From Pyropia yezoensis (lineage: Eukaryota > Rhodophyta > Bangiophyceae > Bangiales > Bangiaceae), in the NCBI GenBank assembly GCA_009829735.1, contig CM020619.1:17179816-17243815 (forward strand): a stretch of 64,000 nucleotides of DNA. The letters are read 5' to 3'. How positions within the stretch are numbered: the first letter of the stretch is position 1; each line of letters begins with the position of its first letter. A model generated the notes under the pieces. It had not been told where the DNA came from, ran no database searches, and saw only the letters and a program-made list of their open reading frames with translations. Below are positions 698 through 47,934 of the stretch, one piece after another. The position numbers were made by a program, and so were the translations under genes.

Positions 698-724
698 TTG
701 GCGGCGGGTCAACCTGCCGTGTCG

Positions 725-2931: not shown

Positions 2932-2933
2932 TA

Positions 2934-12773: not shown

Positions 12774-12775
12774 TA

Positions 12776-16530: not shown

Positions 16531-16592
16531 CTAGGGGTCAACCCTCAGTGTGGCTGATACCTTGAAGTTCTTCAAGGTGAACAGTACGTGGC

Positions 16593-19031: not shown

Positions 19032-19233
19032 AATCAGTCAACCGACGTAACAGTCACCACGAATAAGAGAGCGAGGGGGTAGTTGGGGGAGAGTAACCGT
19101 AGAGCGCAGTCAAACGCAACCACTCAGAACAATCAACCAGATCGCAGCACCACGAGTACAAGAAAAGGACTGGATCCCTACCCGTGTGCCAGCGCCGAAG
19201 ACGGCGTCACCACAAGGGTGACCCAAACCCGTC

Positions 19234-20352: not shown

Positions 20353-20357
20353 CGAGC

Positions 20358-20896: not shown

Positions 20897-20898
20897 GT

Positions 20899-20915: not shown

Positions 20916-21212
20916 AAAGGATATCGACTTTGGTACCTCCCTTGACCGGAGACGGGACCAAGTTGGCCCCTCTCCCCCTTCGGCACCGAGACTTCCGGTG
21001 AAACGATCGACTCGCCTACGTTCCGAGCGTTCGCTGGGTGACGAGGTTGGCCACCGTGAGCCTTGGTGGGAGACCCGGAGTTTCGGGAAACCTCACCGCC
21101 TTCCTTGTGGTAGGTGGAGGGGTGGAACGTGCTCTAGGAACTCCCTAGCTGACGATCCCCGACTCTGGACACCGTTGTTCGTTTTGGTTGACTCCACGTG
21201 ACTCTTGTGGAG

Positions 21213-22976
21213 ATGGCTGGTGAGGGAGACCCCCCCATTGCGCCGAGTGTACCTGGGGAGGGGGAGCGTAGTCCTCCCCCGACGGGCGGAGTACCACCCA
21301 GGCCGGGCAGTGCGGATGTGGTGGGTCCAGAGGTTGGACCCCGACGGCGATCGGCCAGGTTCCTTCCCAGGCCGTCACCGGAAGAGACGGGCGGAGTTCG
21401 CCCTTCTCCGGTGGGAGCGCCGAGCCAGCGTCAGGTTCCGGCAACCTCTTCGGGGAGTGACGACACTCACTTCGGCATGGGACCGCCGACCGGCAGAGGT
21501 GACGGGACAGGGAGTTCTGTACCCCGGGTTGGTGGGTCCGCGCCACGACTGGTGCCGGAAGGACCGGGTGGGAGCTCGAGTCAAGCTCCACCTGGATCAT
21601 CCGGTATCGTGGATAACTCGGTGATGACTGCCATCGCACAAGTCGTGCGAGAGGAGGTGGGGAAGGCGTTGAAGGGGAGCACCCCTCCGCCTGAGCAGGC
21701 CTCGAGGCGTCAGAAGCGACGGGAGATTCGACGTACTCTCCGTCGTGAGGTGGACTCGGAGTCTGAGTCCTCTGCAAGTGGCAAGTCGGGTGAAGAAGAT
21801 CTTACTCGACATGGTCGTGTGACTCACACGGACCGTCTTGGGACTAGAGTCGTCCCAGGAAAGATCGTGGTGAATAATCCATTGTTCAAGGATGTCTTCG
21901 ACTGTGAGACATATGGGTTGGTCAACAAGTCGTTGACCTACTCAAATAGCCAGGCCCGTACCCTGGGCCGGCGCAAGAAACACGTTGCGCAATCCTTCGG
22001 GGTCCGTTCAGAATGGGACGGGACTCCACCCCTGAAGGTCTTCCAGTTTTTGCGGAAGTTCGCAAAAGCCTGCGATGACAATGATGTCTCTGAAGCTGAA
22101 GCGTTTTTCATGCTTCAGGACTTCACCAAGGAGCCACTCCGCTCCGAGGTGATGAACGTCATGCCAAGTCGGCATGGTGGGAATCCGGGTAAGGTGACCT
22201 CCTACCTGGAGTTGGTTAATTGGATCCTTCGTCTTCACGCAGACGAGGCTTCCTTGGCTGTGCAGGTTGAAGAGTTCAACCGCGCCACCCAGACTAAGGG
22301 TGAAGAGGAACGGGAGTTCGCTGAACGACTCCGTCAGCTGAACGTCCTCTGTGGATTCCTATATCCCCAAGGAGTCATTAAGGGACGCTTTGTGGAGGGT
22401 GTCCACCGAGCAGCTCGAGCGACTGTGCGAGAGCGTAATACTCCGACCATGACTCTGGCGGAGTTGGCACGCATCGCCCAGACTAAGGGTGATGAGTACC
22501 GCTGGCTCGTGTCTGAGCAGCGGAAGGAACGAGAGAAAGAAGTTAAGGGAATGGAAGCAAGTCGCTTCCGCAGAACTGCAAGGATGCCTTCCTACATGCG
22601 GACGTACCCTGCAGTACCTTCGTCCTCAACTCGAGAGACGGAAGGTATGGTGGCCGCCATCCCTGATAAGTCACAGGGAAAAGCGGGGCCATCGGCGTCG
22701 ATGAGTGATCGGCCGTGTTGGCAGTGTTCCAAGTCGGGACACTGGGCAGCCCAATGCCCCACTCTGGACGTTCGTTTGAGAGCCCTGTTGGCTCGTATTG
22801 GGAAGCTCGGTATTCCGAGGACTGATTCGGATACCCGGCCACACACCACACGTGTGACGGCCATGACTCAACCTAAGTCAGAGGATGAGTCCACGCTTGA
22901 GAAGGGGGAAACCTCTTCCCCCAGCTCAAGTGGCAAGGATACTCCATCATCCGAGTCGGATGAGGGAAACGCCTAG
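21213..22976 (+). CDS. gag: Gag polyprotein of chromovirus C
   Basis: An intact frame of 587 codons from ATG 21213. GTG 21198 is in frame upstream, but eukaryotic initiation favours the ATG. The first 150 residues are Pro/Gly/Arg-rich; then comes a basic-acidic linker (SRRQKRREIRRTLRREVDSE), then the helical capsid-like domain (VFQFLRKFAKACDDNDVSEA... to ...TLAELARIAQ). Near the C terminus is one CCHC zinc knuckle, CWQCSKSGHWAAQC, encoded from 22716. Gag forms the virus-like particle and packages element RNA. The last codons contain a slippery heptamer (22964-22970), so some ribosomes should shift into pol before the TAG at 22974. Confidence 0.9.
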   Translation: MAGEGDPPIAPSVPGEGERSPPPTGGVPPRPGSADVVGPEVGPRRRSARFLPRPSPEETGGVRPSPVGAPSQRQVPATSSGSDDTHFGMGPPTGRGDGTGSSVPRVGGSAPRLVPEGPGGSSSQAPPGSSGIVDNSVMTAIAQVVREEVGKALKGSTPPPEQASRRQKRREIRRTLRREVDSESESSASGKSGEEDLTRHGRVTHTDRLGTRVVPGKIVVNNPLFKDVFDCETYGLVNKSLTYSNSQARTLGRRKKHVAQSFGVRSEWDGTPPLKVFQFLRKFAKACDDNDVSEAEAFFMLQDFTKEPLRSEVMNVMPSRHGGNPGKVTSYLELVNWILRLHADEASLAVQVEEFNRATQTKGEEEREFAERLRQLNVLCGFLYPQGVIKGRFVEGVHRAARATVRERNTPTMTLAELARIAQTKGDEYRWLVSEQRKEREKEVKGMEASRFRRTARMPSYMRTYPAVPSSSTRETEGMVAAIPDKSQGKAGPSASMSDRPCWQCSKSGHWAAQCPTLDVRLRALLARIGKLGIPRTDSDTRPHTTRVTAMTQPKSEDESTLEKGETSSPSSSGKDTPSSESDEGNA

Positions 22977-23031
22977 CCGCTGGGACTAAGACTGACCCAA
23001 AGGCTCCAGCGGTAATGAAGCGGGTTGCTTC
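22964..23031 (+). promoter_or_regulatory. -1 programmed ribosomal frameshift signal between gag and pol
   Basis: G GGA AAC at 22964-22970 is in the gag frame and fits X XXY YYZ. A shift of -1 there enters the pol frame, which is open from 22964 onward. After a 6-base spacer that contains the gag stop, CCGCTGG (22977-22983) pairs perfectly with CCAGCGG (23006-23012). Its 22-base loop contains GACCC (22994-22998), which can pair with GGGTT (23022-23026). That GGGTT is itself the loop of a second hairpin, GAAGC/GCTTC (23017-23031). This makes either an H-type pseudoknot or kissing hairpins. Heptamer, spacer and structure all match the known layout of retroviral -1 signals. Confidence 0.8.
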
Positions 23032-26000
23032 ACGCTCACCGACCCATGGGAGAGTGAAGGTCCTGACTCGACCTCGAGGGGTGAGACCTAGGGACAAGGC
23101 CCCTCCTCAGAAGCACGACCCGAGTCGGATTGTGTCAGTGCTGGTAGGGAGTAACTACCAGGTCGCAGCTCGACTCTGGCTGCAGGATGGATATGAGTTT
23201 ACCTCTCGTGTCATAGTCGACACAGGCTCTGCTGCCTCTCTCATTAGGCAAGACTTATTGCCAAAGGGGACAGATGTGAGCCCCGCCGGCTCACCCGAGT
23301 GGCGTATGTTTGATGTCAATGGGGGACTCCTCCCCATTGTTGGGTCTATTGCATTGACTGTTTGCATTGGGTTCTACCAGACGCAGGTGAACTTTGGAGT
23401 AGTCTCCAATATGTCAGTCCCCGTACTCCTGGGAACTGACTATCTGGACCTCCATGTCCCGGCCGTCTGTGGACCGGAAGGGATAATCCGAATGCGTAAT
23501 GGAGAGACTGTCCCCATATTGCGTAAAGGGAGGACTGTTTCCCCTACGACTCATCAACCTAGGGAAAACTCTCCCAAGGGTGGAGGCTCTACGACCCATG
23601 TACGAGTATGTAAGGGTACGGTAGTCCCGCCCCGATCAAGGACCTTTGTGCGAGTACGCACACGGTTTCGAGGGAATGGACTTGTTTCCCCCGTGGACCG
23701 AGTCTATTATACTCACCAAGTGCAAGTTGCTTGGGGCCCCATGACTTGTGGGGATGACCAAACCTGGTGGGTGGAGGTCCTCAACACGTCGGAGGAACCT
23801 CGACGACTCCCCGGAGGCATGAAGATTGCGTCGATCTCTACCTTTGAGGGGAATGTCGTTGCTGTGACTCAACAGCAATGGGAGGATATTGGAATGGCAG
23901 GCTCTGCCGACCAATCGAGTTCATCGACGGCTAAGTCGCCGACGGTACATCGGGAGAACATCCCGGAGTGTTTACATGGACGACTGGATGAGTTAATCCA
24001 GAAGCATCACAAGTTGTGGAATGGTGACCTTGGGCTCATCAAGGCCACCGAACACAGAATCGTGTTGAAGCCAGGGGCTAGGCCAGTTCGCCTGAGTCCC
24101 TACCGTATGGGACCAGACTCACGGGAACTCACCCGAGAGCAGGTCCAACGGATGCAAGACATGGGTGTCATTGAGCCTTGCTCAAGTGAGTGGGCCAGTC
24201 CCATAGTCTTGGTGCCCAAGTCAGACGGCACGATGCGGTTCTGCATCGATTATCGTAAGCTAAACGAGCGGACGGTAAGGGATAGTTACCCCTTACCCCG
24301 TATGGACGATTGCCTTGACTCACTCGGTGAGGCACAGTACTTTTCCACGTTGGACTGCAACGCGGGGTACTGGCAGATACCCATCCGCAAGGAGGACAGA
24401 CACTTGACCACCTTCACGTGTCACTGTGGAGTTTATCAGTGTACACGGCTCCCTTTTGGGCTTTGCAATGCACCTGCGACTTTCCAGCGTGCTATTGACT
24501 TGATACTTGCCGGAGTCAAGTGGCAGATCGCCCTGGTGTATCTGGACGATATCATTGTGTTCTCCGGGACTGCCGAAGAACACTTGTCCCACTTGGACAG
24601 AGTGTTTACCCTGTTGGGTGACGCAGGAGTAACACTCAAACCTACGAAGTGTCACCTCTTTAGTAATGAGGTGGAGTACCTCGGCCATATAGTCCGGCCA
24701 GGTCGCATTCTGGTCAATGAGAAGAACCTCATGGCCATCCGTCGGGCGAAGTTCCCCCAGACGCAGACACAACTCAGGAGCTTCCTGGGTATGTGTAACG
24801 TATACAGACGCTTTGTGGCGAACTATGCCAAAGTGTCTGCACCGTTGAACCACTTGGTAAGTTCCAAGATGCCCAAGCGCTTGGATGCTCCCAAACCCCC
24901 GGAGCAAGAAGCGTTTGATAGGTTGCGAGAGCTCCTCTGCAACCCACCGGTGTTAGCGATCCCGAGACCGGGGGCTCACTACATCGTTGATGTGGACGCA
25001 AGTTACGACCAACTCGGTTGTTGCTTACTCCAACAACAGCCTTCGGGGGAGTATTTACCCGTTGGCTATTTCAGTAAGGGACTCTCACCCGCCCAGAAGA
25101 ACTATTCTGTGACGGAGGTAGAGGGTCTTGGCGTGGTATGGGCAGTCTCCATGCTACGGCCATACATCGAAGGAAGGGAGTTCCTCATTCGATGTGACCA
25201 CAAGGCTTTGAAGTGGATACTCACCACTACAGCCTGTACGAATAACCGACTCAATCGATGGCGACTCTGCCTCGCTGAGTTCGATTATGATGTTGAATAT
25301 CGGCCAGGCCCGAAGCATGCGGTTGCGGACGCGTTGTCTCGCATACCGACGGATGGGAAAGACACTTCCCCTATCCCTGAGGAACTCCCTCATGTGGCAG
25401 TGACCACTCGCTCCGGAACTGTCCTCGACCCGAGGATGCCTGGCATGGCCAAATTATTACCCGTGTCTTTGGATGAGTTTGTCCAGGCACAGGAGAACGA
25501 CAAACTTTGTCGACGACTCAGGAAGGAGCTCGACCAGGCTCAACCGACTCGGTTCTTCCTGAATGACAACGGCATACTCTGCCGTAAGGGATATACCCAG
25601 GGGGACAAGCAAGTCGTCGTCCCCAAGGAGTTACGCAAGAGTATCCTCCAACGGGAGCACTCCTCACCGTTGGGTGGACACCCAGGGTCTACGAGGATGT
25701 ATCAGACCCTACGTAAGAAGTACTATTGGCCATCACTCGTGGCTGATGTGTACGGATATGTAGCCGCATGCGCGACTTGCGCAAAGAATAGACTCATGGA
25801 GTCCCGGCAGACTTCTTCCATGAGACTCTTTCCTGCAACAGAGCCGTTTGCAGCGATAGCAGTGGACTTACTCGGTCCACTACCACGAACACCTGAAGGA
25901 TATGAGTACCTTCTGGTGATGTGTGATCGCTTCACTAAGCTCACACGGGTATCCCCACTCAAGGATATCACAGCCGTGGACGTTCTGAGTGAGTTACTCG

Positions 26001-27004
26001 ACGTCTGGGTTGCCAGTTATGGCATCCCCGACTCTATCCTTTCGGATAACGGACCACAGTTTGCGTCCGTCCTGTATCAGGGAGTCATGAAGATGTTGGG
26101 GGTGCAGACGAACTTCGCCACCCCTTACCATCCCCAGACTAATGGGCAGGTGGAACGATTCAACAGGACTCTAGTGCGCCAATTGCGTCACTATGTCCAT
26201 GACCATGTAGTCACATGGGCTCGTTATGCGTCACTTCTCGTGACAGCATACAACTCCCAGGTACACAGTAGTACGGGAGAGGCACCGTTTGCCTTCGTCT
26301 GCCCCCGACGACTTCCGTCAGTAGCTGTGGAGCGTCTCACCCAGACTGAGGGTGAGACTTCGACTCAAACACCGAGTCAGGCGAAAGCCTCCCTACTCCA
26401 GAGACTGGAGGAGATGATACCCCTTGTCCGGGCTACTATGGAGAAGGCCCAAGCCCGTTACAAGAGGTACTTCGATGTCCGAGTCAGACATCGTCGCGAT
26501 CCGCTCCGAGTTGGAGATTGGATTTATGTTAACTCCCACGACAATAAGGGAGGGAAATTGGTCTTCAAGACTCTGGGACCATATCACATCCTTAAAACGG
26601 ATGGACGTCGGTTAACCATCGAGAGTGATGATGGTATCCGGACAATAAATGGGAATCACGCGACTCGCGCACCCGAACCCCCAGAGGGAGATCCCGCTTG
26701 GGAAAGGGCTTTGCAAGCATGGAAAGTCCCATCCTTGCCGACCTCTTCCAATAAGCCATTGGAGGCGGTGTTCGACAAGTTTGTCGGGCACGGATATGAT
26801 GAGTCGGGGCGACTCATGCTCCGAGTCAGGTGGTTCGGGTATGGACCAACTTCCGACACATGGGAGTTTGTAGAGGACCTACCAGTAGAGAAGGTCCGTA
26901 GATACTGCCAGACTGTGGGCATATCTATACGCCGACGTAGCACTCGTACGTCGGGGGATGAAGTCCCTGCTCCAAGTCAGAGCAGAGCGGCAAGCCAACC
27001 ATGA
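23015..27004 (+). CDS. pol: Pol polyprotein of chromovirus C
   Basis: An intact frame, 1329 aa from ATG 23015, but open in frame back to 22964, so synthesis is more likely by -1 frameshift from gag. Domains by residue from that ATG: aspartic protease with VDTGSAASL (Asp69); reverse transcriptase about 390-600 with FCIDYRKLNE, LPFGLCNAPATFQ and YLDDIIVF (about 508); RNase H about 650-770 with VDVDASYD, TEVEGLGVVWAV and CDHKALKW; integrase about 870-1120 with an HHCC finger (GGHPGSTRMYQ ... CATCAKNR), AVDLLGPLP, LSDNGPQFAS and NGQVERFNR; chromodomain about 1250-1300 (VFDKFVGHGYDESGRL, RVRWFGYGPTSDTWEF). All catalytic residues are present. Stop 128 bp before the aORF stop on the other strand. 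Confidence 0.95.
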   Translation: MKRVASRSPTHGRVKVLTRPRGVRPRDKAPPQKHDPSRIVSVLVGSNYQVAARLWLQDGYEFTSRVIVDTGSAASLIRQDLLPKGTDVSPAGSPEWRMFDVNGGLLPIVGSIALTVCIGFYQTQVNFGVVSNMSVPVLLGTDYLDLHVPAVCGPEGIIRMRNGETVPILRKGRTVSPTTHQPRENSPKGGGSTTHVRVCKGTVVPPRSRTFVRVRTRFRGNGLVSPVDRVYYTHQVQVAWGPMTCGDDQTWWVEVLNTSEEPRRLPGGMKIASISTFEGNVVAVTQQQWEDIGMAGSADQSSSSTAKSPTVHRENIPECLHGRLDELIQKHHKLWNGDLGLIKATEHRIVLKPGARPVRLSPYRMGPDSRELTREQVQRMQDMGVIEPCSSEWASPIVLVPKSDGTMRFCIDYRKLNERTVRDSYPLPRMDDCLDSLGEAQYFSTLDCNAGYWQIPIRKEDRHLTTFTCHCGVYQCTRLPFGLCNAPATFQRAIDLILAGVKWQIALVYLDDIIVFSGTAEEHLSHLDRVFTLLGDAGVTLKPTKCHLFSNEVEYLGHIVRPGRILVNEKNLMAIRRAKFPQTQTQLRSFLGMCNVYRRFVANYAKVSAPLNHLVSSKMPKRLDAPKPPEQEAFDRLRELLCNPPVLAIPRPGAHYIVDVDASYDQLGCCLLQQQPSGEYLPVGYFSKGLSPAQKNYSVTEVEGLGVVWAVSMLRPYIEGREFLIRCDHKALKWILTTTACTNNRLNRWRLCLAEFDYDVEYRPGPKHAVADALSRIPTDGKDTSPIPEELPHVAVTTRSGTVLDPRMPGMAKLLPVSLDEFVQAQENDKLCRRLRKELDQAQPTRFFLNDNGILCRKGYTQGDKQVVVPKELRKSILQREHSSPLGGHPGSTRMYQTLRKKYYWPSLVADVYGYVAACATCAKNRLMESRQTSSMRLFPATEPFAAIAVDLLGPLPRTPEGYEYLLVMCDRFTKLTRVSPLKDITAVDVLSELLDVWVASYGIPDSILSDNGPQFASVLYQGVMKMLGVQTNFATPYHPQTNGQVERFNRTLVRQLRHYVHDHVVTWARYASLLVTAYNSQVHSSTGEAPFAFVCPRRLPSVAVERLTQTEGETSTQTPSQAKASLLQRLEEMIPLVRATMEKAQARYKRYFDVRVRHRRDPLRVGDWIYVNSHDNKGGKLVFKTLGPYHILKTDGRRLTIESDDGIRTINGNHATRAPEPPEGDPAWERALQAWKVPSLPTSSNKPLEAVFDKFVGHGYDESGRLMLRVRWFGYGPTSDTWEFVEDLPVEKVRRYCQTVGISIRRRSTRTSGDEVPAPSQSRAASQP

Positions 27005-27132: not shown

Positions 27133-29050
27133 CTAGCGTTCCATATGGCCACCCCCACCACTATAGGGACCGCCCGACCACGAACCCCCAGGGTCGTAGG
27201 CCGGTAGCGGAGGGGCGTAACCCACTCGGGAGGGCCCCGGAGTGGAAGCACTGGGAGGGGCCCGCCGACTCGCGGACCCATCCCCATCGTAAGATAGATG
27301 TCCGGAGGTACTCCCTCCGTGACGCGGAAGCTGCTGCTGAGTCGACAGCAGCCGTTGGACAAACTCGTGTCCAACCGCGAGGCGAGTGACCTCAGCTGCC
27401 AATGACTGTCGCGCCGTGGCTGAGTCGCCCGACGCGAGGAAGTGACTGACACGCCGGGTGACCCAAGCCAACGTGTCAAGGGAGGCCACGAGTGAGGCCT
27501 CCACCGTGGCGTCATACATGATGGCTCCCAAGTTGGGAAGCATCTCGCCAACGCCACGCGCAATCGGCATGGGTACCGGAGTTCGGACCCGTAGCGAACC
27601 CAACGCCACGTCGGGGAAGGGCTCGAGGAACTGGAAGGGTGGAGCCTGAGTCGGCTCCACACCCCCCGAGGTCGGAGTCGCGACCCGCGGGGAAGTCGTC
27701 GGCACAGCTCGCCCGCGGCTTCGAGGGGCTCCTCGATGAGCACCACGACGAGTCGTCGCCGATGATGTCGCCCACCCAGAGCCAGGGGGCGACGTAGAGG
27801 GAGTAACCCCCTCTGCGTAGGGAAGGGAAGAGTCCCCCAACCCCTCACGCAAGAACAGCTGTCCCTGCACCAGAGTATGGGTGACATGGACGAACTCCCG
27901 GGGTGGCTCACTCTCCCAACCCCGGCTCTGGACGCTTGTTGCGGCGGAGGAAGGGTTCCAGCTGCGCCCAATCGAGTCGATTGTGCAGGGTGACCATACC
28001 CTTAAGGAGGAACGGAGCCAGGTCCCCCGCGCCCAAGGCTAACCAGTGGAAGCCAAGGGTTTCCATACCCTCCACCAGAGCCGGTGGGAGGTGCCACAGG
28101 TAACCCCGATGGACTACATCGGAGTACCAGCCCCGAGCCACCACGACCACCCAGTGCGTGGCGAGGTAGGCGAAGACCCGGTTACCCTCCGAGCTGGAGC
28201 GTAGCACGGAGCCAAAGTAGGCAACGAGGAGGGGGATCCGAGCCGGAAACCCACAAGGTACCTCCACTGTCTCCCACCACCCTGGGAGAAAAGGGTACTG
28301 GTGCTCACGCTCCTCCAGAGGTACGTGGGTGAACTCCACCCGCGACCCGTGGATGAGGAAGCCCGAGGAGCCCCGGAGTCGGAACTCCTCTCGCACCACG
28401 CCGTGTTGGGCGTGGGCGTCCTCTCCGCCCAGGTAGGGACGGGGAAGGGCACACCACTCGGTAGACACAACCGCGTGGGTGTCGTCGATCTCCACGTCGC
28501 CCGACCCCAAGGCGAGGGAGGTTGACAACGCCTGGACTTCAGGCGCGTCCGCCAGGCAGAGTAGCGCTGGTAGGTCGCAGACCACCCCATCAGGTAGAGT
28601 CACCTGGTTGGGGTACCGACGAGTCCGGCGGTACCATACGTCGGTCCGCCGTGGCTCGGGGATGATCAAGTAGACATCCTTGAGCTTGCAGTCGGGAAGC
28701 TCCCCGACTGACTTGGGAGGCGCCCAGGCTCGGGGCCCCATAGGAGGACGGGGCCGCGGCGGGAGTAGCAGCCGTGACTCAGGAAGGCGGGGGATGGGAG
28801 TCACATCCCCTTCCGCCACCGGGTTGGAAGACCCATCCCCCGGTGGGACCACGGCCGAGGGGGCAGTAGGAGGTGACGGGGCGGGGACGGCTGAGGCGGC
28901 CGCCTCCGACCCTCGCCCGGGACGAGTCGTCTCCATGGCCGACCCCCGGCTGAGAGACTCCTCAGTCCCGAGGGCCTCCTCTCCCGTCCGTCGCTTGTCC
29001 GACAGAGACGTCGGAGACGGGGACAAAGGCCGACTCGGCTCACCCGCCAT
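27133..29050 (-). pseudogene. Antisense ORF (aORF) of chromovirus C, first copy, one-base frameshift
   Basis: The same gene as 34479-36395, but an extra C in the run near 27915 (CTCTCCCAAC versus CTCTCCAAC in the other copy) shifts the frame, leaving open blocks 29050-27908 and 27870-27133. The change lies in a homopolymer, so a sequencing error is as likely as a mutation. The start ATG is at 29048-29050. It is convergent with pol. See the entry for the intact copy for domains. Confidence 0.8.
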
Positions 29051-30048: not shown

Positions 30049-30531
30049 TGTGGGAGATTGGGCCCGGAATTCGGTACCAATACTTTGAAGATTCGGGTCA
30101 AGTGGACCTGACCGGAAGTCGAAATTCACCCGACCCACGATGGTGAAACTTCTGACTTCTGGACGGAAATTCGACTAGGACTTCCGACATACTAGAGCAG
30201 GGTAATGCTGCTGGTATTTGTTTCTTGGGATTTTTGCACGGGAGCCAGACGGATTTCTACGCTTTGAGTTCTTTGCATGTGGAGTGATATGATTGGTTTG
30301 TTTGAGGGTTCATTTTCTGAGTGTTTTGAGGGGTTGCGTGAGCGTGTGAGGAGGGTTGATAAGGAGGACGCAAGGCGGGAGGCCCACCTTGGCTGGCCAA
30401 GCAAGAAAACACCGTCTGGCTCCGACACATCTTGTTCGTGCCTTGGTGAGTGGACCCGCTCACCACACGCAAGTTCCGTGTTCGGCTGTGTGGAGGTGCT
30501 TGCTTCCGGTGTCCCAAGTTGGGATATCGGC
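30049..30531 (+). repeat. Middle LTR of element C, truncated by the gap
   Basis: It matches the first 483 or so of 539 LTR bases, with several one-base indels near 30364-30382. It shares the A variant of the right outer LTR (GAAAACACC) rather than the G of the left one. It ends at the run of N. Confidence 0.9.
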
Positions 30532-31031: not shown

Positions 31032-34000
31032 CCGTGGACCGAGTCTATTATACTCACCAAGTGCAAAGTTGCTTGGGCCCCATGACTTGTGGGGATGACC
31101 AAACCTGGTGGGTGGAGGTCCTCAAACACGTCGGAGGAACCTCGACGACTCCCCGGAGGCATGAAGATTGCGTCGATCTCTACTTTGAGGGAATGTCGTT
31201 GCTGTGACTCAACAGCAATGGGAGGATATTGGAATGGCAGGCTCTGCCGACCAATCGAGTTCATCGACGGCTAAGTCGCCGACGGTACATCGGGAGAACA
31301 TCCCGGAGTGTTTACATGGACGACTGGATGAGTTTAATCCAGAAGCATCACAAGTTGTGGAATGGTGACCTTGGGCTCATCAAGGCCACCGAACACAGAA
31401 TCGTGTTGAAGCCAGGGGCTAGGCCAGTTCGCCTGAGTCCCTACCGGTATGGGACCAGACTCACGGGAACTCACCCGAGAGCAGGTCCAACGGATGCAAG
31501 ACATGGGTGTCATTGAGCCTTGCTCAAGTGAGTGGGCCAGTCCCATAGTCTTGGTGCCCAAGTCAGACCGGCACGATGCGGTTCTGCATCGATTATCGTA
31601 AGCTAAACGAGCGGACGGTAAGGGATAGTTACCCTTACCCCGTATGGACGATTGCCTTGACTCACTCGGTGAGGCACAGTACTTTTCCACGTTGGACATG
31701 CAACGCGGGGTACTGGCAGATACCCATCCGCAAGGAGGACAGACACTTGACCACCTTCACGTGTCACTGTGGAGTTTATCAGTGTACACGGCTCCTTTTG
31801 GGCTTTGCAATGCACCTGCGACTTTCCAGCGTGCTATTGACTTGATACTTGCCGGAGTCAAGTGGCAGATCGCCCTGGTGTATCTGGACGATATCATTGT
31901 GTTCTCCGGGACTGGCCGAAGAACACTTGTCCCACTTGGACAGAGTGTTTACCCTGTTGGGTGACGCAGGAGTAACACTCAAACCTACGAAGTGTCACCT
32001 CTTTAGTAATGAGGTGGAGTACCTCGGCCATATAGTCCCGGCCAGGTCGCATTCTGGTCAATGAGAAGAACCTCATGGCCATCCGTCGGGCGAAGTTCCC
32101 CCAGACGCAGACACAACTCAGGAGCTTCCTGGGTATGTGTAACGTATACAGACGCTTTGTGGCGAACTATGCCAAAGTGTCTGCACCGTTGAACCACTTG
32201 GTAAGTTCCAAGATGCCCAAGCGCTTGGATGCTCCCAAACCCCCGGAGCAAGAAGCGTTTGATAGGTTGCGAGAGCTCCTCTGCAACCCACCGGTGTTAG
32301 CGATCCCGAGACCGGGGGCTCACTACATCGTTGATGTGGACGCAAGTTACGACCAACTCGGTTGTTGCTTACTCCAACAACAGCCTTCGGGGGAGTATTT
32401 ACCCGTTGGCTATTTCAGTAAGGGACTCTCACCCGCCCAGAAGAACTATTCTGTGACGGAGGTAGAGGGTCTTGGCGTGGTATGGGCAGTCTCCATGCTA
32501 CGGCCATACATCGAAGGAAGGGAGTTCCTCATTCGATGTGACCACAAGGCTTTGAAGTGGATACTCACCACTACAGCCTGTACGAATAACCGACTCAATC
32601 GATGGCGACTCTGCCTCGCTGAGTTCGATTATGATGTTGAATATCGGCCCAGGCCCGAAGCATGCGGTTTGCGGACGCGTTGTCTCGCATACCGACGGAT
32701 GGGAAAGACACTTCCCCTATCCCTGAGGAACTCCCTCATGTGGCAGTGACCACTCGCTCCGGAACTGTCCTCGACCCGAGGATGCCTGGCATGGCCAAAT
32801 TATTACCCGTGTCTTTGGATGAGTTTGTCCAGGCACAGGAGAACGACAAACTTTGTCGACGACTCAGGAAGGAGCTCGACCAGGCTCAACCGACTCGGTT
32901 CTTCCTGAATGACAACGGCATACTCTGCCGTAAGGGATATACCCAGGGGGACAAGCAAGTCGTCGTCCCCAAGGAGTTACGCAAGAGTATCCTCCAACGG
33001 GAGCACTCCTCACCGTTGGGTGGACACCCAGGGTCTACGAGGATGTATCAGACCCTACGTAAGAAGTACTATTGGCCATCACTCGTGGCTGATGTGTACG
33101 GATATGTAGCCGCATGCGCGACTTGCGCAAAGAATAGACTCATGGAGTCCCGGCAGACTTCTTCCATGAGACTCTTTCCTGCAACAGAGCCGTTTGCAGC
33201 GATAGCAGTGGACTTACTCGGTCCACTACCACGAACACCTGAAGGATATGAGTACCTTCTGGTGATGTGTGATCGCTTCACTAAGCTCACACGGGTATCC
33301 CCACTCAAGGATATCACAGCCGTGGACGTTCTGAGTGAGTTACTCGACGTCTGGGTTGCCAGTTATGGCATCCCCGACTCTATCCTTTCGGATAACGGAC
33401 CACAGTTTGCGTCCGTCCTGTATCAGGGAGTCATGAAGATGTTGGGGGTGCAGACGAACTTCGCCACCCCTTACCATCCCCAGACTAATGGGCAGGTGGA
33501 ACGATTCAACAGGACTCTAGTGCGCCAATTGCGTCACTATGTCCATGACCATGTAGTCACATGGGCTCGTTATGCGTCACTTCTCGTGACAGCATACAAC
33601 TCCCAGGTACACAGTAGTACGGGAGAGGCACCGTTTGCCTTCGTCTGCCCCCGACGACTTCCGTCAGTAGCTGTGGAGCGTCTCACCCAGACTGAGGGTG
33701 AGACTTCGACTCAAACACCGAGTCAGGCGAAAGCCTCCCTACTCCAGAGACTGGAGGAGATGATACCCCTTGTCCGGGCTACTATGGAGAAGGCCCAAGC
33801 CCGTTACAAGAGGTACTTCGATGTCCGAGTCAGACATCGTCGCGATCCGCTCCGAGTTGGAGATTGGATTTATGTTAACTCCCACGACAATAAGGGAGGG
33901 AAATTGGTCTTCAAGACTCTGGGACCATATCACATCCTTAAAACGGATGGACGTCGGTTAACCATCGAGAGTGATGATGGTATCCGGACAATAAATGGGA

Positions 34001-34350
34001 ATCACGCGACTCGCGCACCCGAACCCCCAGAGGGAGATCCCGCTTGGGAAAGGGCTTTGCAAGCATGGAAAGTCCCATCCTTGCCGACCTCTTCCAATAA
34101 GCCATTGGAGGCGGTGTTCGACAAGTTTGTCGGGCACGGATATGATGAGTCGGGGCGACTCATGCTCCGAGTCAGGTGGTTCGGGTATGGACCAACTTCC
34201 GACACATGGGAGTTTGTAGAGGACCTACCAGTAGAGAAGGTCCGTAGATACTGCCAGACTGTGGGCATATCTATACGCCGACGTAGCACTCGTACGTCGG
34301 GGGATGAAGTCCCTGCTCCAAGTCAGAGCAGAGCGGCAAGCCAACCATGA
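31032..34350 (+). pseudogene. pol: Second copy of chromovirus C pol, 5' part full of one-base indels
   Basis: It starts at the equivalent of 23691 in the first copy. From 31032 to about 32670 at least a dozen single-base insertions or losses break the frame (for example at about 31075, 31183, 31333, 31446, 31567, 31633, 31698, 31794, 31914, 32037, 32650 and 32669). From there to 34350 I see no difference from the first copy, and the RNase H end, integrase and chromodomain are open (32662-34350). The errors are confined to the side next to the gap, as expected for poorly polished contig ends, not for decay of a gene. Confidence 0.85.
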
Positions 34351-34478: not shown

Positions 34479-36395
34479 CTAGCGTTCCATATGGCCACCC
34501 CCACCACTATAGGGACCGCCCGACCACGAACCCCCAGGGTCGTAGGCCGGTAGCGGAGGGGCGTAACCCACTCGGGAGGGCCCCGGAGTGGAAGCACTGG
34601 GAGGGGCCCGCCGACTCGCGGACCCATCCCCATCGTAAGATAGATGTCCGGAGGTACTCCCTCCGTGACGCGGAAGCTGCTGCTGAGTCGACAGCAGCCG
34701 TTGGACAAACTCGTGTCCAACCGCGAGGCGAGTGACCTCAGCTGCCAATGACTGTCGCGCCGTGGCTGAGTCGCCCGACGCGAGGAAGTGACTGACACGC
34801 CGGGTGACCCAAGCCAACGTGTCAAGGGAGGCCACGAGTGAGGCCTCCACCGTGGCGTCATACATGATGGCTCCCAAGTTGGGAAGCATCTCGCCAACGC
34901 CACGCGCAATCGGCATGGGTACCGGAGTTCGGACCCGTAGCGAACCCAACGCCACGTCGGGGAAGGGCTCGAGGAACTGGAAGGGTGGAGCCTGAGTCGG
35001 CTCCACACCCCCCGAGGTCGGAGTCGCGACCCGCGGGGAAGTCGTCGGCACAGCTCGCCCGCGGCTTCGAGGGGCTCCTCGATGAGCACCACGACGAGTC
35101 GTCGCCGATGATGTCGCCCACCCAGAGCCAGGGGGCGACGTAGAGGGAGTAACCCCCTCTGCGTAGGGAAGGGAAGAGTCCCCCAACCCCTCACGCAAGA
35201 ACAGCTGTCCCTGCACCAGAGTATGGGTGACATGGACGAACTCCCGGGGTGGCTCACTCTCCAACCCCGGCTCTGGACGCTTGTTGCGGCGGAGGAAGGG
35301 TTCCAGCTGCGCCCAATCGAGTCGATTGTGCAGGGTGACCATACCCTTAAGGAGGAACGGAGCCAGGTCCCCCGCGCCCAAGGCTAACCAGTGGAAGCCA
35401 AGGGTTTCCATACCCTCCACCAGAGCCGGTGGGAGGTGCCACAGGTAACCCCGATGGACTACATCGGAGTACCAGCCCCGAGCCACCACGACCACCCAGT
35501 GCGTGGCGAGGTAGGCGAAGACCCGGTTACCCTCCGAGCTGGAGCGTAGCACGGAGCCAAAGTAGGCAACGAGGAGGGGGATCCGAGCCGGAAACCCACA
35601 AGGTACCTCCACTGTCTCCCACCACCCTGGGAGAAAAGGGTACTGGTGCTCACGCTCCTCCAGAGGTACGTGGGTGAACTCCACCCGCGACCCGTGGATG
35701 AGGAAGCCCGAGGAGCCCCGGAGTCGGAACTCCTCTCGCACCACGCCGTGTTGGGCGTGGGCGTCCTCTCCGCCCAGGTAGGGACGGGGAAGGGCACACC
35801 ACTCGGTAGACACAACCGCGTGGGTGTCGTCGATCTCCACGTCGCCCGACCCCAAGGCGAGGGAGGTTGACAACGCCTGGACTTCAGGCGCGTCCGCCAG
35901 GCAGAGTAGCGCTGGTAGGTCGCAGACCACCCCATCAGGTAGAGTCACCTGGTTGGGGTACCGACGAGTCCGGCGGTACCATACGTCGGTCCGCCGTGGC
36001 TCGGGGATGATCAAGTAGACATCCTTGAGCTTGCAGTCGGGAAGCTCCCCGACTGACTTGGGAGGCGCCCAGGCTCGGGGCCCCATAGGAGGACGGGGCC
36101 GCGGCGGGAGTAGCAGCCGTGACTCAGGAAGGCGGGGGATGGGAGTCACATCCCCTTCCGCCACCGGGTTGGAAGACCCATCCCCCGGTGGGACCACGGC
36201 CGAGGGGGCAGTAGGAGGTGACGGGGCGGGGACGGCTGAGGCGGCCGCCTCCGACCCTCGCCCGGGACGAGTCGTCTCCATGGCCGACCCCCGGCTGAGA
36301 GACTCCTCAGTCCCGAGGGCCTCCTCTCCCGTCCGTCGCTTGTCCGACAGAGACGTCGGAGACGGGGACAAAGGCCGACTCGGCTCACCCGCCAT
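34479..36395 (-). CDS. Antisense ORF (aORF) of chromovirus C, intact, function unknown
   Basis: 638 aa from ATG 36395 on the strand opposite to gag and pol, with its stop 128 bp from the pol stop. The frame is open further upstream, but that part is low-complexity leader. Residues 1-115 are Pro/Ser/Arg-rich. A conserved core covers about 120-415: ELPDCKLKDVYLIIPEPRR, then STEWCALPRPYLGG, then WWETVEVPCGFPARIP (258-273), YFGSVL, FAYLATHW, GYLWHLPPALVEGM, LHNRLDWAQLEPFLRR and FLREGLGDSSLPY. A helical segment (about 500-570) and a Gly/Ser-rich tail follow. The same motifs in the same order occur in D (43163-45106) and, more distantly, in A (725-2376). No signal peptide, membrane span, zinc finger or catalytic site is seen, so an envelope role is not supported. 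Antisense extra ORFs are known in plant Tat-lineage elements, but I see no similarity that I can name. Confidence 0.8.
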   Translation of the reverse strand: MAGEPSRPLSPSPTSLSDKRRTGEEALGTEESLSRGSAMETTRPGRGSEAAASAVPAPSPPTAPSAVVPPGDGSSNPVAEGDVTPIPRLPESRLLLPPRPRPPMGPRAWAPPKSVGELPDCKLKDVYLIIPEPRRTDVWYRRTRRYPNQVTLPDGVVCDLPALLCLADAPEVQALSTSLALGSGDVEIDDTHAVVSTEWCALPRPYLGGEDAHAQHGVVREEFRLRGSSGFLIHGSRVEFTHVPLEEREHQYPFLPGWWETVEVPCGFPARIPLLVAYFGSVLRSSSEGNRVFAYLATHWVVVVARGWYSDVVHRGYLWHLPPALVEGMETLGFHWLALGAGDLAPFLLKGMVTLHNRLDWAQLEPFLRRNKRPEPGLESEPPREFVHVTHTLVQGQLFLREGLGDSSLPYAEGVTPSTSPPGSGWATSSATTRRGAHRGAPRSRGRAVPTTSPRVATPTSGGVEPTQAPPFQFLEPFPDVALGSLRVRTPVPMPIARGVGEMLPNLGAIMYDATVEASLVASLDTLAWVTRRVSHFLASGDSATARQSLAAEVTRLAVGHEFVQRLLSTQQQLPRHGGSTSGHLSYDGDGSASRRAPPSASTPGPSRVGYAPPLPAYDPGGSWSGGPYSGGGGHMER

Positions 36396-37398: not shown

Positions 37399-37937
37399 TG
37401 TGGGAGATTGGGCCGGAATTCGGTACCAATACTTTGAAGATTCGGGTCAAGTGGACCTGACCGGAAGTCGAAATTCACCCGACCCACGATGGTGAAACTT
37501 CTGACTTCTGGACGGAAATTCGACTAGGACTTCCGACATACTAGAGCAGGGTAATGCTGCTGGTATTTGTTTCTTGGGATTTTTGCACGGGAGCCAGACG
37601 GATTTCTACGCTTTGAGTTCTTTGCATGTGGAGTGATATGATTGGTTTGTTTGAGGGTTCATTTTCTGAGTGTTTTGAGGGGTTGCGTGAGCGTGTGAGG
37701 AGGGTTGATAAGGAGGGACAGCAAGGCGGGGAGGGCCCACCTTGGCTGGCCAAGCAAGAAAACACCGTCTGGCTCCGACACATCTTGTTCGTGCCTTGGT
37801 GAGTGGACCCGCTCACCACACGCAAGTTCCGTGTTCGGCTGTGTGGAGGTGCTTGCTTCCGGTGTCCCAAGTTGGGATATCGGCAATACTCCTCTTCCTT
37901 CCCTGACTCGGGGTTGGTGCTTGGGAGTACTGCTACA
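37399..37937 (+). repeat. 3' LTR of chromovirus C (539 bp)
   Basis: TGTGGGAG...CTGCTACA, the same length as the left outer LTR and differing from it at one base that I can see. CGAGC follows, matching the five bases before 20358. Confidence 0.95.
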
Positions 37938-37942
37938 CGAGC

Positions 37943-42359: not shown

Positions 42360-42827
42360 TTTGGCAAAAACCCATTCGCACACACGGCGCTCAAGTTCGG
42401 GTGGTGCACAAGGGCTGCCTCCCGTGTCAGGGGAACCGGAAGAAGTGCAAGTCGCACACACGCTGTCTCTGTTGTGGGACAATCCCCCCACCAGTAAACA
42501 AGAAGATGGTCTGTGAACCAACAGTTTCTTGGTCGGGACGGGGAAGCGAGGACAAGCCCCGCTGTCCCTCCCCTTGTCCCCCCAGGGTCCCCTCAGAATC
42601 TCTCCACTCGGAATCTCCCACCCCAGCACCTGCCCTCCGGGCCACACGAAAATTCAAGACGATAAAATGCAGAAAACCCTCAAATCCACCTTGGATTTAC
42701 AACTAAGCTAACCATCCCTAACTAAGGGAATATGGACCCAAATGCATGGGGAGAAACGGGTCAGGCTAGCTGCCTGCCGCCCCTTGTATGGCACGTGTTG
42801 CCCTCCTACCTGGGGTCAACTGCCACA
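42360..42827 (-). repeat. 3' LTR of chromovirus D (468 bp)
   Basis: Starts TTTGGC (TGTGGC in the other copy) and ends GCCACA on the plus strand. It aligns without length change to 47467-47934 with few substitutions. Confidence 0.9.
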
Positions 42828-43162: not shown

Positions 43163-45106
43163 ATGGTGACCCCGGGGTTGGAGACTGACGCCATGGACGA
43201 ACGGATGGGGGATACAACCTGCGATGTAGCGCCCGCCGGGACTTCCGGCGGGGGCTCCACGGTCGCTCCGGGGGATGGGATGCCCGCGTCACCCGGATTT
43301 GGGTCGGCGGCGGGATCTCCCCCGGAGTTTGGCCCCGTTATTCCACGGGAGGCCTTGGGGAGGTGGTTCTACCCCCTTTGGCCCCTGTACGAGGAGGGGT
43401 TGACGGTTACCCGCTGTGGCCGACTTGGCACAGCGATGAGTCGCGTCTGGGACCGCCTACGGGAGAAGTTCCCCCGTAGGGTTGGGTTTCCTGCCGACTT
43501 CAAGACGGACCAGTTTGCCTTCCTGGATGAGGACGAGGTCGAAGACGTGCAGCGGGCCAAGAACTTTTTGGCCCGTGGGGGTACCACCGCGGGCCCCGGC
43601 GCCGTGCCGTCCTTCACTTGGGACGCGGTGGCAGCTCGCCCCCCGTACGTACGTGACCTCGATCCGCACAGTCATCACTTCGACGTGCGGATGGGGAAGG
43701 ACTACCGGCGAGATCCCTACTTAGTGACCTCGTCTCAACTCGAGTTTCCGCAGCAGTCACCTGCTAGCAAGGAGCAATACTACCCCAAAAAGCCCGAGTG
43801 GTGGCCTCAAGTCGAGGTCCCCTATGGATTCCCGGCGCTACTACCACGGTTGGTCGACCACTTCGGCTCCGTCATGTTGACGGCTAGCCCGGACCACCTG
43901 GTGTTCGCCATGTTGGCAACCCAGTGGCTCCTTGAGGATATGTCATCCTGGGTGTCTTGTGTACAGCGGCGGGGGATGTTCTGGCATTTATCCCCCCGGC
44001 TTATCCAAGGTTTGGAGCAGCTCGCCCCTCAGCTAGTTGCTGAGGGGTGCCCGTCGGGGCAGCTCACTATACTCGAGGAGATGCTGCGTCTCCACAAGCT
44101 CATCGAGTGGGAGAGCATCGAGCACAAGTTGCGCCGATCTTCCGGCGGGCCAAAGGACGATGGCGCACTTCGCCAGTTCGTCTGGGTCGGCCGTGAACTT
44201 CACGACGCCCGCGTGGTCCTCAAGGAGGGGTTGGGCATCGGGGACTTCCCGTTTACCCCGGGGATGGAGCGCCACACTACGCCTCCCCCGGACAAGGCAA
44301 TCGTGGTGGCCATGGCCTCCCACGACGACTACATGGCTCAACCCACTGCGGGAGCCCCGAGTAGGGGTCGCGGCTACTCTCGGGCTCCGCCTATTCGGTG
44401 AGCCCCTCCTCTTCCTCCTGTCCCATTCCAGCCGCACGAGGACGTCCCGATAGGCGTTTCCGTTGAGTCGTCCACTCCGGTGTCCCCCCACTTGGGGGCC
44501 ACCCTACTCACGGTCTACCCCAAGTTCGTACTGCCGGCCACGCCCTTGAGTTCCGAGATGATGATCACCACGTTGGTGCGCACCATTTCTTGGTTGGCCG
44601 CGTCGGCTGCAACACTCCAAGTATCCGACACTCCTCAACTTGAGGAGCGCGCTCGTACTGTACTGGCGACCGCGAGTTGCGAGTCGGTAGCGGGGTTCAT
44701 GACGACCGAGTTGGCTCGTATCGGGTCGATCGTGCCCCTGTCGGCCCCACTTGGGCGCGGCAAGCGTCGAGCAAGCCGGGCATACTCGCCTCCTCACTGT
44801 CGTCGCCGTCACTTGCGGCGGTCTCCCTCCGTGTCGGAAGACGAGTTGTCTTATTCCGCCTCGGAGTCCTCTACCCCGTCGGAGACGGAGTCTGTCCGGC
44901 GTCTGCGTCTCCAACTTGCGCGCAAGACCAAGCGGGTTAATAGCCGCGGTCCTCGCCACCTGCGCGACCGTGAGGGGCGCGACGGTTTCGACTTGGAGCC
45001 GCCGCCCCCTACGACGAGTGGAGAACGTTATCGGCGTGGGTCTCGCCGCTCGCCTCCGCGTGGAGGCGAGGGTCGTGGTGGTGGGGAGTCTAGCATGCGT
45101 GCCTAG
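43163..45106 (+). CDS. Antisense ORF (aORF) of chromovirus D, one in-frame TGA
   Basis: One plus-strand frame of about 647 codons from ATG 43163 to the stop at 45106, interrupted only by TGA at 44399-44401. The part before the TGA is 412 aa. Shared core motifs with element C: PSFTWDAVAARPPYV, SSQLEF, WWPQVEVPYGFPALLPRL, HFGSVM, FAMLATQWLLE, GMFWHLSPRLIQGL, LHKLIEWESIEHKLRR, then VLKEGLGIGDFPFTPGM. After the TGA the homologous helical region follows (MITTLVRTISWLAASAATL), then an Arg/Ser-rich tail (RRGSRRSPPRGGEG). The TGA could be a CGA-to-TGA change or a readthrough codon. It is convergent with the integrase gene, stops 111 bp apart. Function unknown; survival in a gag/RT-less element is notable. 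Confidence 0.75.
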
Positions 45107-45217: not shown

Positions 45218-46593
45218 TCAGACTGAGGGAGGGCAGTTAGGGCCGATATCATTCCGGGCGCAGTACGCCTGGACCTTCTCAGCCGGAAGATCCTCCACGT
45301 ACTCACACGTATCATCTTTGGCCTTATAGCCGAACCACCGCACCCTCAGCATGAGGCGGTTAGTGTCCTCATCCCACCCGTGGTCGATGACCTTATCGAA
45401 CACGTACTCCTGCGGTCCCTGTTTGGTCGCAGGTAGCGAAGGCAGGCGCCACACCTTCAGCGCACGCGCCCAAGCCGGGTCGCCTGCCGGAGGTTGTGTA
45501 CATTTTACCACGTCCTGTCCGTTTACTGTGCGGATCCCATTGTCACTTTCGATGGGAAACCGTCGCCCATCCGTACGAAGGACTTGGTATGACCCCTTCG
45601 TTTGGAACACCAACTTACCCCCAGTTGGGGGATGTGAGTGTGCAAGAACCCAGTCACCCTGCTCGGGGACGTGCTTGGCATTACGCACCTTCTTGTCAAA
45701 AGTACGTTTGTAGCGCTTTTGCGCTTTGTCCATCTCAGCCCTGACTTTTGGGATGAGTTTCTCGAGCCTAGCGGCGAACTCCGCCTTACTCTCAGTAGGA
45801 GTAGGTGTACTGCCATCGGCCTCCCTAGTTGGGAGCGGCCGCCGTACGGCAATAGACCGCACGCGACGGGGGGTCACAAATGCGAGGGGTATTCCCCGGT
45901 AGATGAGTGAACCTGCGAATTGTAGGCGGTTGTCAGAATAGAAATGTATTGGTCCCACATTCTCACGTGCTCACTCACATAGTGGCGCAGCTGTCGAACA
46001 ATAGTTTTGTTGAAGCGCTCCACCTGCCCATTGGTTTGTGGGTGGTAGGGGGTGGCATGGTTTGTCTGAACCCCCAACGTATCCAGCACTCCCTGAAACA
46101 GACAGGACGCAAACTGCGGTCCGTTGTCCGACAATGTACTGTCCGGGATGCCATAAGCGACAACCCAGTGATCTAGGAAGGCTGACACGACCGACATGGC
46201 CGTGATCTCTGCCAGAGGGATCGCTCGCGTAAGTCTCGTGAAGCGATCGCAGATGACCAAGAGGTACTGGTTGCCATCCTCTGTCACTGGCAGGGGCCCA
46301 AGGATGTCCATTGCCAACGCGGCAAAGGGCTCCTTAGCCCGGAACAGCAGCATAGCCGTAGTAGGCCGCCGTTCCATCAGACGGTTCTGTGTACAACTGG
46401 TGCAGGCGGCCACCCAACTGTAGATGTCCACCACCATGGACGGCCAGTAGTACATGGTCCTCTGGGTCTGGTATAGTTTACTAGACCCCAGGTGTCCACC
46501 TGTGGGAGCGTTATGCTCCCTCTCAAGGATACTGTCCTTGAGGGATGCGGGGACGACAAGTTGTTCAGTCCCCTGAATTACCCCCCTCCTCAA
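45218..46593 (-). pseudogene. pol: Chromovirus D integrase and chromodomain, one frameshift
   Basis: The minus strand encodes the HHCC finger (GGHLGSSKLYQT ... CTSCTQNR), the catalytic DILGPLP, TLSDNGPQFAS and NGQVERFNK, then a basic region and a chromodomain (VFDKVIDHGWDEDTNRL, RVRWFGYKAKDDTCEY). The frame shifts near 45890, so the open blocks are 46593-45874 and 45958-45218. The chromodomain has Cys where element C has Trp in DTWE. RT and RNase H, which should precede it, are absent: the sequence before 46593 is rearranged. It is closest in sequence to element C. Confidence 0.88.
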
Positions 46594-46689
46594 GAGGAGG
46601 CCATCGTCTCCGGCGAAGAATCGCGACTCTGCGACGGTGTCCAGCGCCTCCCTCTGCGACTTGCAGAAGGGATCTTCGGCCGGGTCAAT

Positions 46690-46975
46690 ACTCCTTGAAA
46701 CATAACGGACACAAACTGCGGTCCGGTCTCTGAAAAGGTCCTGTCAGGGGTGCTACACGCAGAGGTAGTGCGGGACGTCTCCACGCACCACTTGTGCATA
46801 CAACAACCCATCCACATGCGTCACTGTCATACGGGCCAGATTTTCCTGGTCCTCAGGATCTGGTATAGTGTATTAGACCCGGGATATACACCCCAGGGGG
46901 CGTTACGCTTCCGATCAAGATACTTTCCTTGAGGGTGGCGGGGGTAACAGCTTGTTCCGACCCCTGTCACAGGCT
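46690..46975 (-). pseudogene. Duplicated, deleted fragment of the D integrase region
   Basis: Several blocks repeat sequence found at 46080-46570 (ACAAACTGCGGTCCG, a GGTCCTC...TCTGGTATAGT block, and TTCCTTGAGGG...GGGG), in the same order but with large parts missing. This is the scar of a second, more diverged integrase copy next to the first. Confidence 0.55.
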
Positions 46976-47466: not shown

Positions 47467-47934
47467 TGTGGCAAAAACCTACTCGCACACACGGCACCCA
47501 AGTTCGGGTGGTGCACGAGGGTTGCCTCCCGTGTCAGGGGAACCGGAAGAAGTGCAAGTCGCACACACGCTGTCTCTGTTGTGGGACAATCCCCCCACCA
47601 GTAAACAAGAAGATGGTCTGTGAACCAACAGTTTCTTGGTCGGGACGGGGAAGCGAGGCCAAGCCCCGCTGTCCCTCCCCTTGTCCCCCCAGGGTCCCCT
47701 CAGAATCTCTCCACTCGGAATCTCCCACCCCAGCACCTGCCCTCCGGGCCACACGAAAATTCAAGACGATAAAATGCAGAAAACCCTCAAATCCACGTTG
47801 GATTTACAACTAAGCTAACTATCCCTAACTTAGGGAATATGGACCCAAATGCATGGGGAGAAACGGGTCAGGCTAGCTGCCTGCCGCCCCTTGTATGGCA
47901 CGTGTTGCCCTCCTACCTGGGGTCAACTGCCACA
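47467..47934 (-). repeat. 5' LTR of chromovirus D (468 bp)
   Basis: TGTGGC...GCCACA on the plus strand, so the LTR ends are 6-bp inverted repeats. Confidence 0.92.

What the first reader, a model, noticed from the sequence alone, without database searches (positions are those of the whole stretch)
34479..36395. A new protein family encoded antisense to pol in three chromovirus lineages
The aORF proteins of elements A, C and D share an ordered set of motifs (WW-x-x-VEVP-x-GFP, FGSV, LATxW, W-H-L-P/S, a helix with H...W, LxEGLG), while their LTRs differ completely and their pol proteins have diverged. In all three cases the gene is convergent with pol and lies before the 3' LTR. Conservation of protein and position in three families argues for a selected role in the element's life cycle. 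I know no domain that it matches. Antisense extra ORFs have been described in plant Tat-lineage elements, but not, to my knowledge, with this protein.
Basis: partly seen in the sequence, partly recalled or inferred. Interest (0 to 1): 0.92.

Follow-up and report, generated by a model that had tools for sequence, protein, structure and literature searches.

The report
Antisense accessory gene of algal retrotransposons
Several families of jumping genes in the nori seaweed carry, on the opposite strand to their usual genes, an extra protein gene that natural selection has kept intact and for which no known protein relative was found; such backward extra genes are known from flowering plants and fungi, and this looks like a separate, unexplored case in red algae.

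Summary
Window 34479-36395 (-) encodes a 638-aa protein, antisense to gag-pol, between pol and the 3' LTR of a Ty3/gypsy-type element of Pyropia yezoensis. Homologues hold the same place in at least four lineages: A and C (34-37% identical), D (remote, by profile comparison) and a fourth A-like one. Of 51 distinct loci, 48 have pol converging on the opposite strand, 3 show no pol in the flank, none the same strand. dN/dS is 0.23-0.30 (C, 10 pairs), 0.24 and 0.28 (A, 2 usable pairs), 0.34-0.56 (18 of 19 D pairs, one 0.79); a re-placement null gives means of 0.84-1.00. No significant Pfam, PHROGs, PDB-sequence or fold match. The only named protein relatives are from Pyropia vietnamensis. Antisense ORFs at this place are known from plant Retand/Grande and fungal Boty elements, so the kind is known; the protein family and host group look new. 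Likeliest role, inferred: nuclear, nucleic-acid-binding accessory regulator. Expression was not testable. In the window A2 is open, A1 frame-broken, C has an in-frame stop, D is broken and truncated.

The parts
34479..36395 (-). aORF of element copy A2: 638 aa from ATG (MAGEPS...), open; the finding itself
27133..29050 (-). aORF of element copy A1, same protein, frame broken near 27917-27921
   Evidence: residues 1-378 and 377-638 in different frames
21192..22976 (+). gag ORF of A1 (594 aa; CCHC zinc knuckle just under Pfam cut-off)
22964..27004 (+). pol ORF of A1 (1346 aa: RT, RNase H, integrase, chromodomain-like C-terminus)
32662..34350 (+). 3' part of pol of copy A2 (integrase, chromodomain-like end); no gag hit for this copy, and its upstream pol frame is broken
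20358..20896 (+). first LTR of the A array (99.8% to the last one)
30049..30531 (+). middle LTR of the A array (aligned part)
37399..37937 (+). last LTR of the A array, 3' LTR of copy A2; a purine-rich tract lies just before it
37938..37942 (.). target-site duplicate CGAGC (other copy 20353-20357)
43163..45007 (+). aORF of element C; in-frame stop at 44399-44401, homology to the 724-aa frame of L060 continues to 45007
45224..46707 (-). pol remnant of element C (integrase to chromodomain-like end), convergent with the aORF
42362..42827 (-). 3' LTR of element C (97.9% to 47469-47934)
47469..47934 (-). 5' LTR of element C
710..2373 (+). aORF remnant of element D (frame change near 1270; first ~271 residues missing)
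2874..2933 (-). last 20 aligned residues of D pol, separated from the rest of pol by ~9.8 kb
12773..19037 (-). [quoted passage not shown]
19251..19619 (-). 5' LTR of element D (93.5% to the LTR of another D copy)

Best explanation
Shown: the frame is a protein-coding gene of LTR retrotransposons of the red alga, placed antisense between pol and the 3' LTR, found with gag-pol in at least four lineages and kept by purifying selection. Inferred: it is transcribed from a promoter in or just inside the 3' LTR, independently of the genomic RNA, and makes a soluble protein with a disordered N-terminus, a conserved helical core, a flexible linker and a second helical domain (in family C followed by a very basic RS-rich tail). 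Most likely it works in the nucleus in trans as an accessory regulator: it binds element RNA or DNA and controls transcription, protects against silencing, or helps export of the genomic RNA, so that copies which have lost gag or RT can still supply it.
For: Homology A-C-D in colinear order and a fourth lineage (L062). Convergent with pol in 48 of 51 distinct loci, pol not found in the 1.5-kb flank in 3 (all D), same strand in 0. One complete C element, L060: near-identical LTRs (99.8%), TSD CACTC, open gag (678 aa), pol (1364 aa) and aORF (724-aa frame). dN/dS 0.23-0.30 (10 C pairs), 0.24 and 0.28 (the 2 of 10 A pairs with enough changes), 0.34-0.56 in 18 of 19 D pairs; in 11 of 11 pairs taken from these 39 the observed value lies below all 200 random re-placements. 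No gap in the core stretch (401 nt) in 7 of 7 C copies, against 6-15 gapped positions in the 335-nt leader. Identity falls together with that of pol: A-L062 71% pol / 50% aORF, A-C 59% / 37%. ATGGC start context in A and C. No transmembrane-like stretch in A, C or D (maximum KD19 1.38, 1.23, 1.41). RS/R-rich tail in C. Copy A2 of the window keeps the gene open although no gag was found in it.
Against: No expression, localisation or binding data could be obtained. No domain or fold match gives a function; both structure models are of low confidence (mean pLDDT 39.3 and 47.3). The basic tail is clear in C only: A and D gave no match to the basic-cluster patterns scanned. No TATAAA/TATATA/TATAAG-type box on the aORF strand in the LTR plus leader of A or C. 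dN/dS of the aORF is about twice that of pol in the same pairs (pol 0.10-0.17 in 6 pairs), so constraint is weaker than on pol. At the DNA level the LTR and the 117-bp aORF-pol gap are less diverged between C copies than the aORF core, and the second helical stretch has 2 gapped positions in 1 of 7 copies. One D pair gives 0.79.
Confidence: 0.5

Rival explanations
1. A structural or particle protein: a second Gag-like or virion-associated protein expressed from the opposite strand.
For: Helical core and disordered flanks are what a small capsid-like protein could look like (low-confidence prediction only).
Against: Profile comparison of the A, C and D families with gags of the same elements finds nothing (E 0.19-0.7 in the 4 comparisons made), whereas gag A/C to gag D is found at E 2e-12. 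No zinc knuckle match in the aORFs.
Confidence: 0.12
2. An env-like or movement protein that acts at membranes.
For: It lies where env lies, between pol and the 3' LTR.
Against: Antisense, not sense; no transmembrane-like stretch (maximum KD19 1.38 A, 1.23 C, 1.41 D).
Confidence: 0.04
3. A captured host gene, or an inserted second element, carried along and now a passenger.
For: Own strand, own start, no detected relation to gag; capture would explain the orientation.
Against: Purifying selection and presence in lineages whose pols are well diverged (A-C 59%; A or C to D 29-53% by piece); all 48 loci with pol detected have the same arrangement. No copy outside the elements was recognised in the own-genome searches, but only the best 69-108 candidates per search were scored and the contexts of only 51 loci plus L062 were read.
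Confidence: 0.12
4. The antisense transcript, not the protein, matters (a regulatory or siRNA-producing RNA), and the long frame is a by-product of GC-rich sequence.
For: Long chance frames exist in this window; antisense RNAs without coding capacity are known in other elements (PMC7264820 passages).
Against: Changes concentrate at third codon positions of this frame (e.g. 68/57/166 for L060 against L012), dN/dS below all 200 re-placements in 11 of 11 pairs tested, protein-level homology at 24-37% between lineages.
Confidence: 0.04

Closest known systems
[quoted passage not shown]
   Same: Same place, same orientation, kept in many copies, function unknown; Grande's protein is nuclear and its gene is transcribed from a promoter upstream of it (PMC7264820 and PMC11963269 passages).
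   Different: No PF04195 match in the 8 alignment members or the 8 proteins and pieces (E up to 10, though HMMER drops most matches above about 0.1), nor in this genome. Host is a red alga; the elements have a chromodomain-like pol end, whereas Retand is described as non-chromovirus (abstract). Remote kinship with TRP28 could not be tested profile to profile.
brtn of Boty-like elements in Botrytis (antisense gene)
   Same: An antisense additional gene of a fungal LTR element (seen only as passages and a reference title).
   Different: Sequence not available here; no comparison made.
HBZ of HTLV-1 and other retroviral antisense genes
   Same: Gene antisense to gag-pol near the 3' LTR, nuclear regulator (PMC11963269 and PMC7264820 passages).
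   Different: No bZIP or other Pfam domain found here; no transcript evidence; analogy only.
CERV of the Cer1 element of C. elegans
   Same: A novel extra protein of an LTR retrotransposon with a nuclear job, export of genomic RNA (abstract).
   Different: CERV comes from a spliced Cer1 mRNA (abstract); no sequence comparison made.

Membership tests
Antisense additional ORF between pol and 3' LTR (aORF-3R class) | Lies between pol and the 3' LTR | tested here: met
   A (window), C (L060) and D (L059 with L063):
Antisense additional ORF between pol and 3' LTR (aORF-3R class) | Antisense to gag-pol | tested here: met
   48 of 51 distinct loci opposite strand, 3 no pol in flank, 0 same strand
Antisense additional ORF between pol and 3' LTR (aORF-3R class) | Present and conserved in most copies of the family | tested here: inconclusive
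   Many copies found starting from the aORF itself (70, 96, 102 rows); copies were not counted starting from pol
Antisense additional ORF between pol and 3' LTR (aORF-3R class) | Own antisense transcript | not testable with these tools
   no RNA data held
TRP28 / Transposase_28 (PF04195) aORF of Retand | Match to PF04195 | tested here: not met
   remote kinship below HMMER's reach not excluded
Plant mobile domain (PF10536) or Athila ORF-1 (PF03078) aORFs | Match to the Pfam model | tested here: not met
   whole Pfam-A scans; these two were not searched singly
Env-like ORF | Sense orientation and transmembrane segment | tested here: not met
Gag-like protein | Profile similarity to gag of the same elements | tested here: not met
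HBZ-like antisense bZIP protein | bZIP domain | tested here: not met
   whole Pfam-A scans
Chromovirus (host elements) | Chromodomain at the C-terminus of pol | tested here: inconclusive
   PF00385 in the right place in A, C and D but below its cut-off
Chromovirus (host elements) | RT falls in the chromovirus clade | not tested
   no reference RT set fetched

The most novel reading that the evidence does not exclude
The algal protein is a very remote relative of the antisense TRP28-type proteins of flowering-plant elements, so that an antisense regulatory gene beside the 3' LTR would be an ancient part of Ty3/gypsy elements of red algae and land plants rather than a late, independent gain. By eye the core (helix with YFGS, helix with W, then LWHLP) has a layout like what I recall of TRP28; this is a lead from memory, not a test.
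Probability: 0.1. Interest if true: 0.8.

Novelty: new variant of a known kind. Interest (0 to 1): 0.52.

Why it matters
Antisense extra ORFs of LTR retrotransposons have been described since the 1990s without a settled function, in the papers seen here mostly from flowering plants. An apparently independent, high-copy, selectively conserved case in a red alga with a 107-Mb genome and at least one very young complete copy gives a second system in which to ask what such proteins do, and suggests that carrying an antisense accessory gene is a recurrent solution of Ty3/gypsy elements. It also warns annotators: in Pyropia vietnamensis four relatives of this gene are deposited as 'hypothetical protein'.

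Tried and rejected
Rejected: env-like (antisense, no membrane stretch); gag-derived (no profile match to the elements' own gags); chance frame; frame forced by overlap with pol (no overlap: pol ends 34350, aORF stop at 34479).

Led nowhere: AlphaFold2 of the whole A protein (15 sequences, mean pLDDT 39.3) and of the core (13 sequences, 47.3; only about residues 190-260 of the core piece reach 56-81 by 10-residue mean). Foldseek on the core model gave nothing at E below 0.3 (PDB best E 1.6, BFVD best E 0.37). Weak matches taken as noise: DUF641 to a C-family C-terminal piece (E 0.17); four PDB sequences to the C protein, best a GLYR1 chain at E 0.093. PHROGs none in 3 proteins; profile search of PDB sequences none; PF04195 in the own genome none, while the control genomes gave only a sub-cut-off ring in E. 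coli. A third, profile search of the 5.8-billion set added only P0012-P0016, unnamed. Literature: ten searches answered; among the listed titles and abstract starts, which are only part of the hits where many papers matched, I saw no report of this protein or of antisense ORFs in red algal LTR elements. Most subscription papers and preprints are not held. PyRE1G1, a Porphyra element name that I recalled, was found in no held paper.

Limits: own-genome searches score only the best candidates, so copy numbers are lower bounds and favour well-kept copies; 'no stop' does not exclude frameshifts. The dN/dS null keeps base-to-base types but not CpG context; it was run on 11 of 39 pairs. The block-wise dN/dS is from one pair. 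Kinship with TRP28 could not be tested profile to profile for want of TRP28 sequences.

Full report
What is there. The window is C2:17179816-17243815 of a 107.5-Mb genome whose contigs C1, C2 and C3, 43.6, 34.3 and 29.4 Mb, equal in length the three scaffolds published for Pyropia yezoensis (PMC7423979, passages), a genome of which 48% is repeats, mostly LTR elements. At 34479-36395 on the minus strand an ATG-to-stop frame encodes 638 aa. It belongs to the second of two nearly identical element copies that share LTRs (20358-20896, 30049-30531, 37399-37937), the whole array flanked by one CGAGC duplication. Gag (21192-22976) and pol (22964-27004) of the first copy are on the plus strand; the second copy has pol to 34350 and no gag hit. 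The 638-aa gene runs the other way, its stop 128 bp beyond the end of pol. Just inside the 3' LTR lies a purine-rich tract on the gag-pol strand in A and C, so the gene lies between pol and the presumed polypurine tract.

Is it real. Frame length is not the argument, since GC-rich parts of the window hold frames as long as 860 aa. The arguments are three. First, homology: A and C proteins are 34% identical over 290 aa (E 3e-43), and A and D profiles match over 325 columns including the C-terminal helical stretch, score 65.8 against at most 24.9 in 60 block shuffles and 15.1 reversed. C to D is weaker (41.0 against 27.9 shuffled and 31.2 reversed; BLASTP E 1.7e-7). Second, place: L001-L058 are 58 loci, 51 after removal of 7 duplicates (A 21, C 10, D 20). 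Pol was found on the opposite strand, converging, in 48, not found in the 1.5-kb flank in 3 (all D, one of them the window's own D copy, whose 20-residue opposite-strand pol tail shows), and on the same strand in none. A fourth lineage (L062: pol 71%, aORF 50% to A) has the same arrangement, with broken frames. Third, selection: NG86 dN/dS is 0.23-0.30 for L060 against 10 C-family loci; 0.28 and 0.24 for A against two loci of the other subfamily, while eight further A loci differ at too few sites to use (0.15-0.50); and 0.34-0.56 for 18 of 19 D-family loci against L028, 0.79 for one. When the same substitutions are re-placed at random the mean is 0.84-1.00, and the observed value lies below all 200 replicates in 11 of 11 pairs tested out of these 39. 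Pol in six of these pairs gives 0.10-0.17. In one C pair (L060-L012) the tightest full 100-codon blocks are 300-400 (0.11) and 500-600 (0.14), the core and the C-terminal helices; others range from 0.22 to 0.65. In seven C copies the core stretch has no gap, the leader has 6-15 gapped positions, and the C-terminal stretch has 2 in one copy.

State of the copies. In own-genome searches 59 of 70 rows for A, 82 of 96 for C (query 439 aa) and 86 of 102 for D (query 410 aa) have no stop inside, by my count of the tables; only the best candidates were scored, so this favours good copies, and frameshifts are not counted. L060 is a complete C element: LTRs 99.8% identical over 469 aligned bases, CACTC duplication, gag 678 aa, pol 1364 aa, aORF in a 724-aa stop-to-stop frame that begins about 110 bp inward of the 3' LTR. 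In the window, copy A2 is open, copy A1 is frame-broken, C has an in-frame stop, and D is truncated and frame-broken with its pol split by about 9.8 kb.

What the protein looks like. N-terminal ~100 residues rich in P, G, S, T (A); a core predicted helical with the conserved motifs; a low-complexity linker; a second helical stretch; in C a strongly basic RS-rich tail. No transmembrane-like segment. Start contexts are ATGGC in A and C. The structure models are too poor to use for fold matching, and the searches made with the core model gave nothing.

Relatives. None has a precomputed Pfam domain. Sensitivity is limited to shared 5-residue words, so absence elsewhere is not proven.

How it compares. 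[quoted passage not shown] By place and orientation the algal gene is one of this kind. By sequence it matches none of the described Pfam families at HMMER sensitivity. The host elements carry a chromodomain-like pol end below Pfam's cut-off; since chromodomains also occur in Gypsy lineages outside chromoviruses (PMC12477816, passage), the label stays open.

How it probably works. Shown: coding, antisense, found with gag-pol across lineages, selected. Inferred: its own promoter near the 3' LTR, nuclear site, nucleic-acid binding, a trans role in regulating transcription, silencing or RNA export. The inference rests on analogy with Grande gene23 (nuclear), HBZ and CERV (abstract), on the lack of membrane or gag features, and on the basic tail of one lineage. 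I give the combined statement 0.5; the coding-and-selected part alone I hold above 0.95.

Verdict. The novelty is a new protein family in a new host group within a known kind.

Noticed in passing
20353-37942: The A element is an array LTR-A1-LTR-A2-LTR with a single outer 5-bp target-site duplication (CGAGC): a tandem composite. A2 shows no gag hit and a frame-broken 5' pol but an open aORF.
   Followed up: partly
L060 2787-2903: The 117-bp gap between the convergent aORF and pol is less diverged between C-family copies (0.035-0.110) than the aORF core (0.119-0.155), without gaps in the 7 copies compared (one aligned over 113 of 117); perhaps a shared 3'-end or cis signal.
   Followed up: partly
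2934-12772: About 9.8 kb, in large part very GC-rich (up to 0.81 in 2-kb steps), splits the pol of element D; it includes an ORF at 4880-5359 that looks like a Tc1/mariner-type transposase end (by eye, not searched).
   Followed up: no
48607-54329: A D-family relic (mostly 70-80% identical in gag and pol) on the plus strand, cut off in the 3' part of pol; no aORF hit beside it.
   Followed up: partly
7212-7270: A run of about 50 G on the plus strand inside the GC-rich stretch.
   Followed up: no
L060 2439-2786: The C-family aORF ends in a basic, arginine/serine-rich tail (net +11 in one block of 60 residues); the patterns scanned did not match in A or D.
   Followed up: partly
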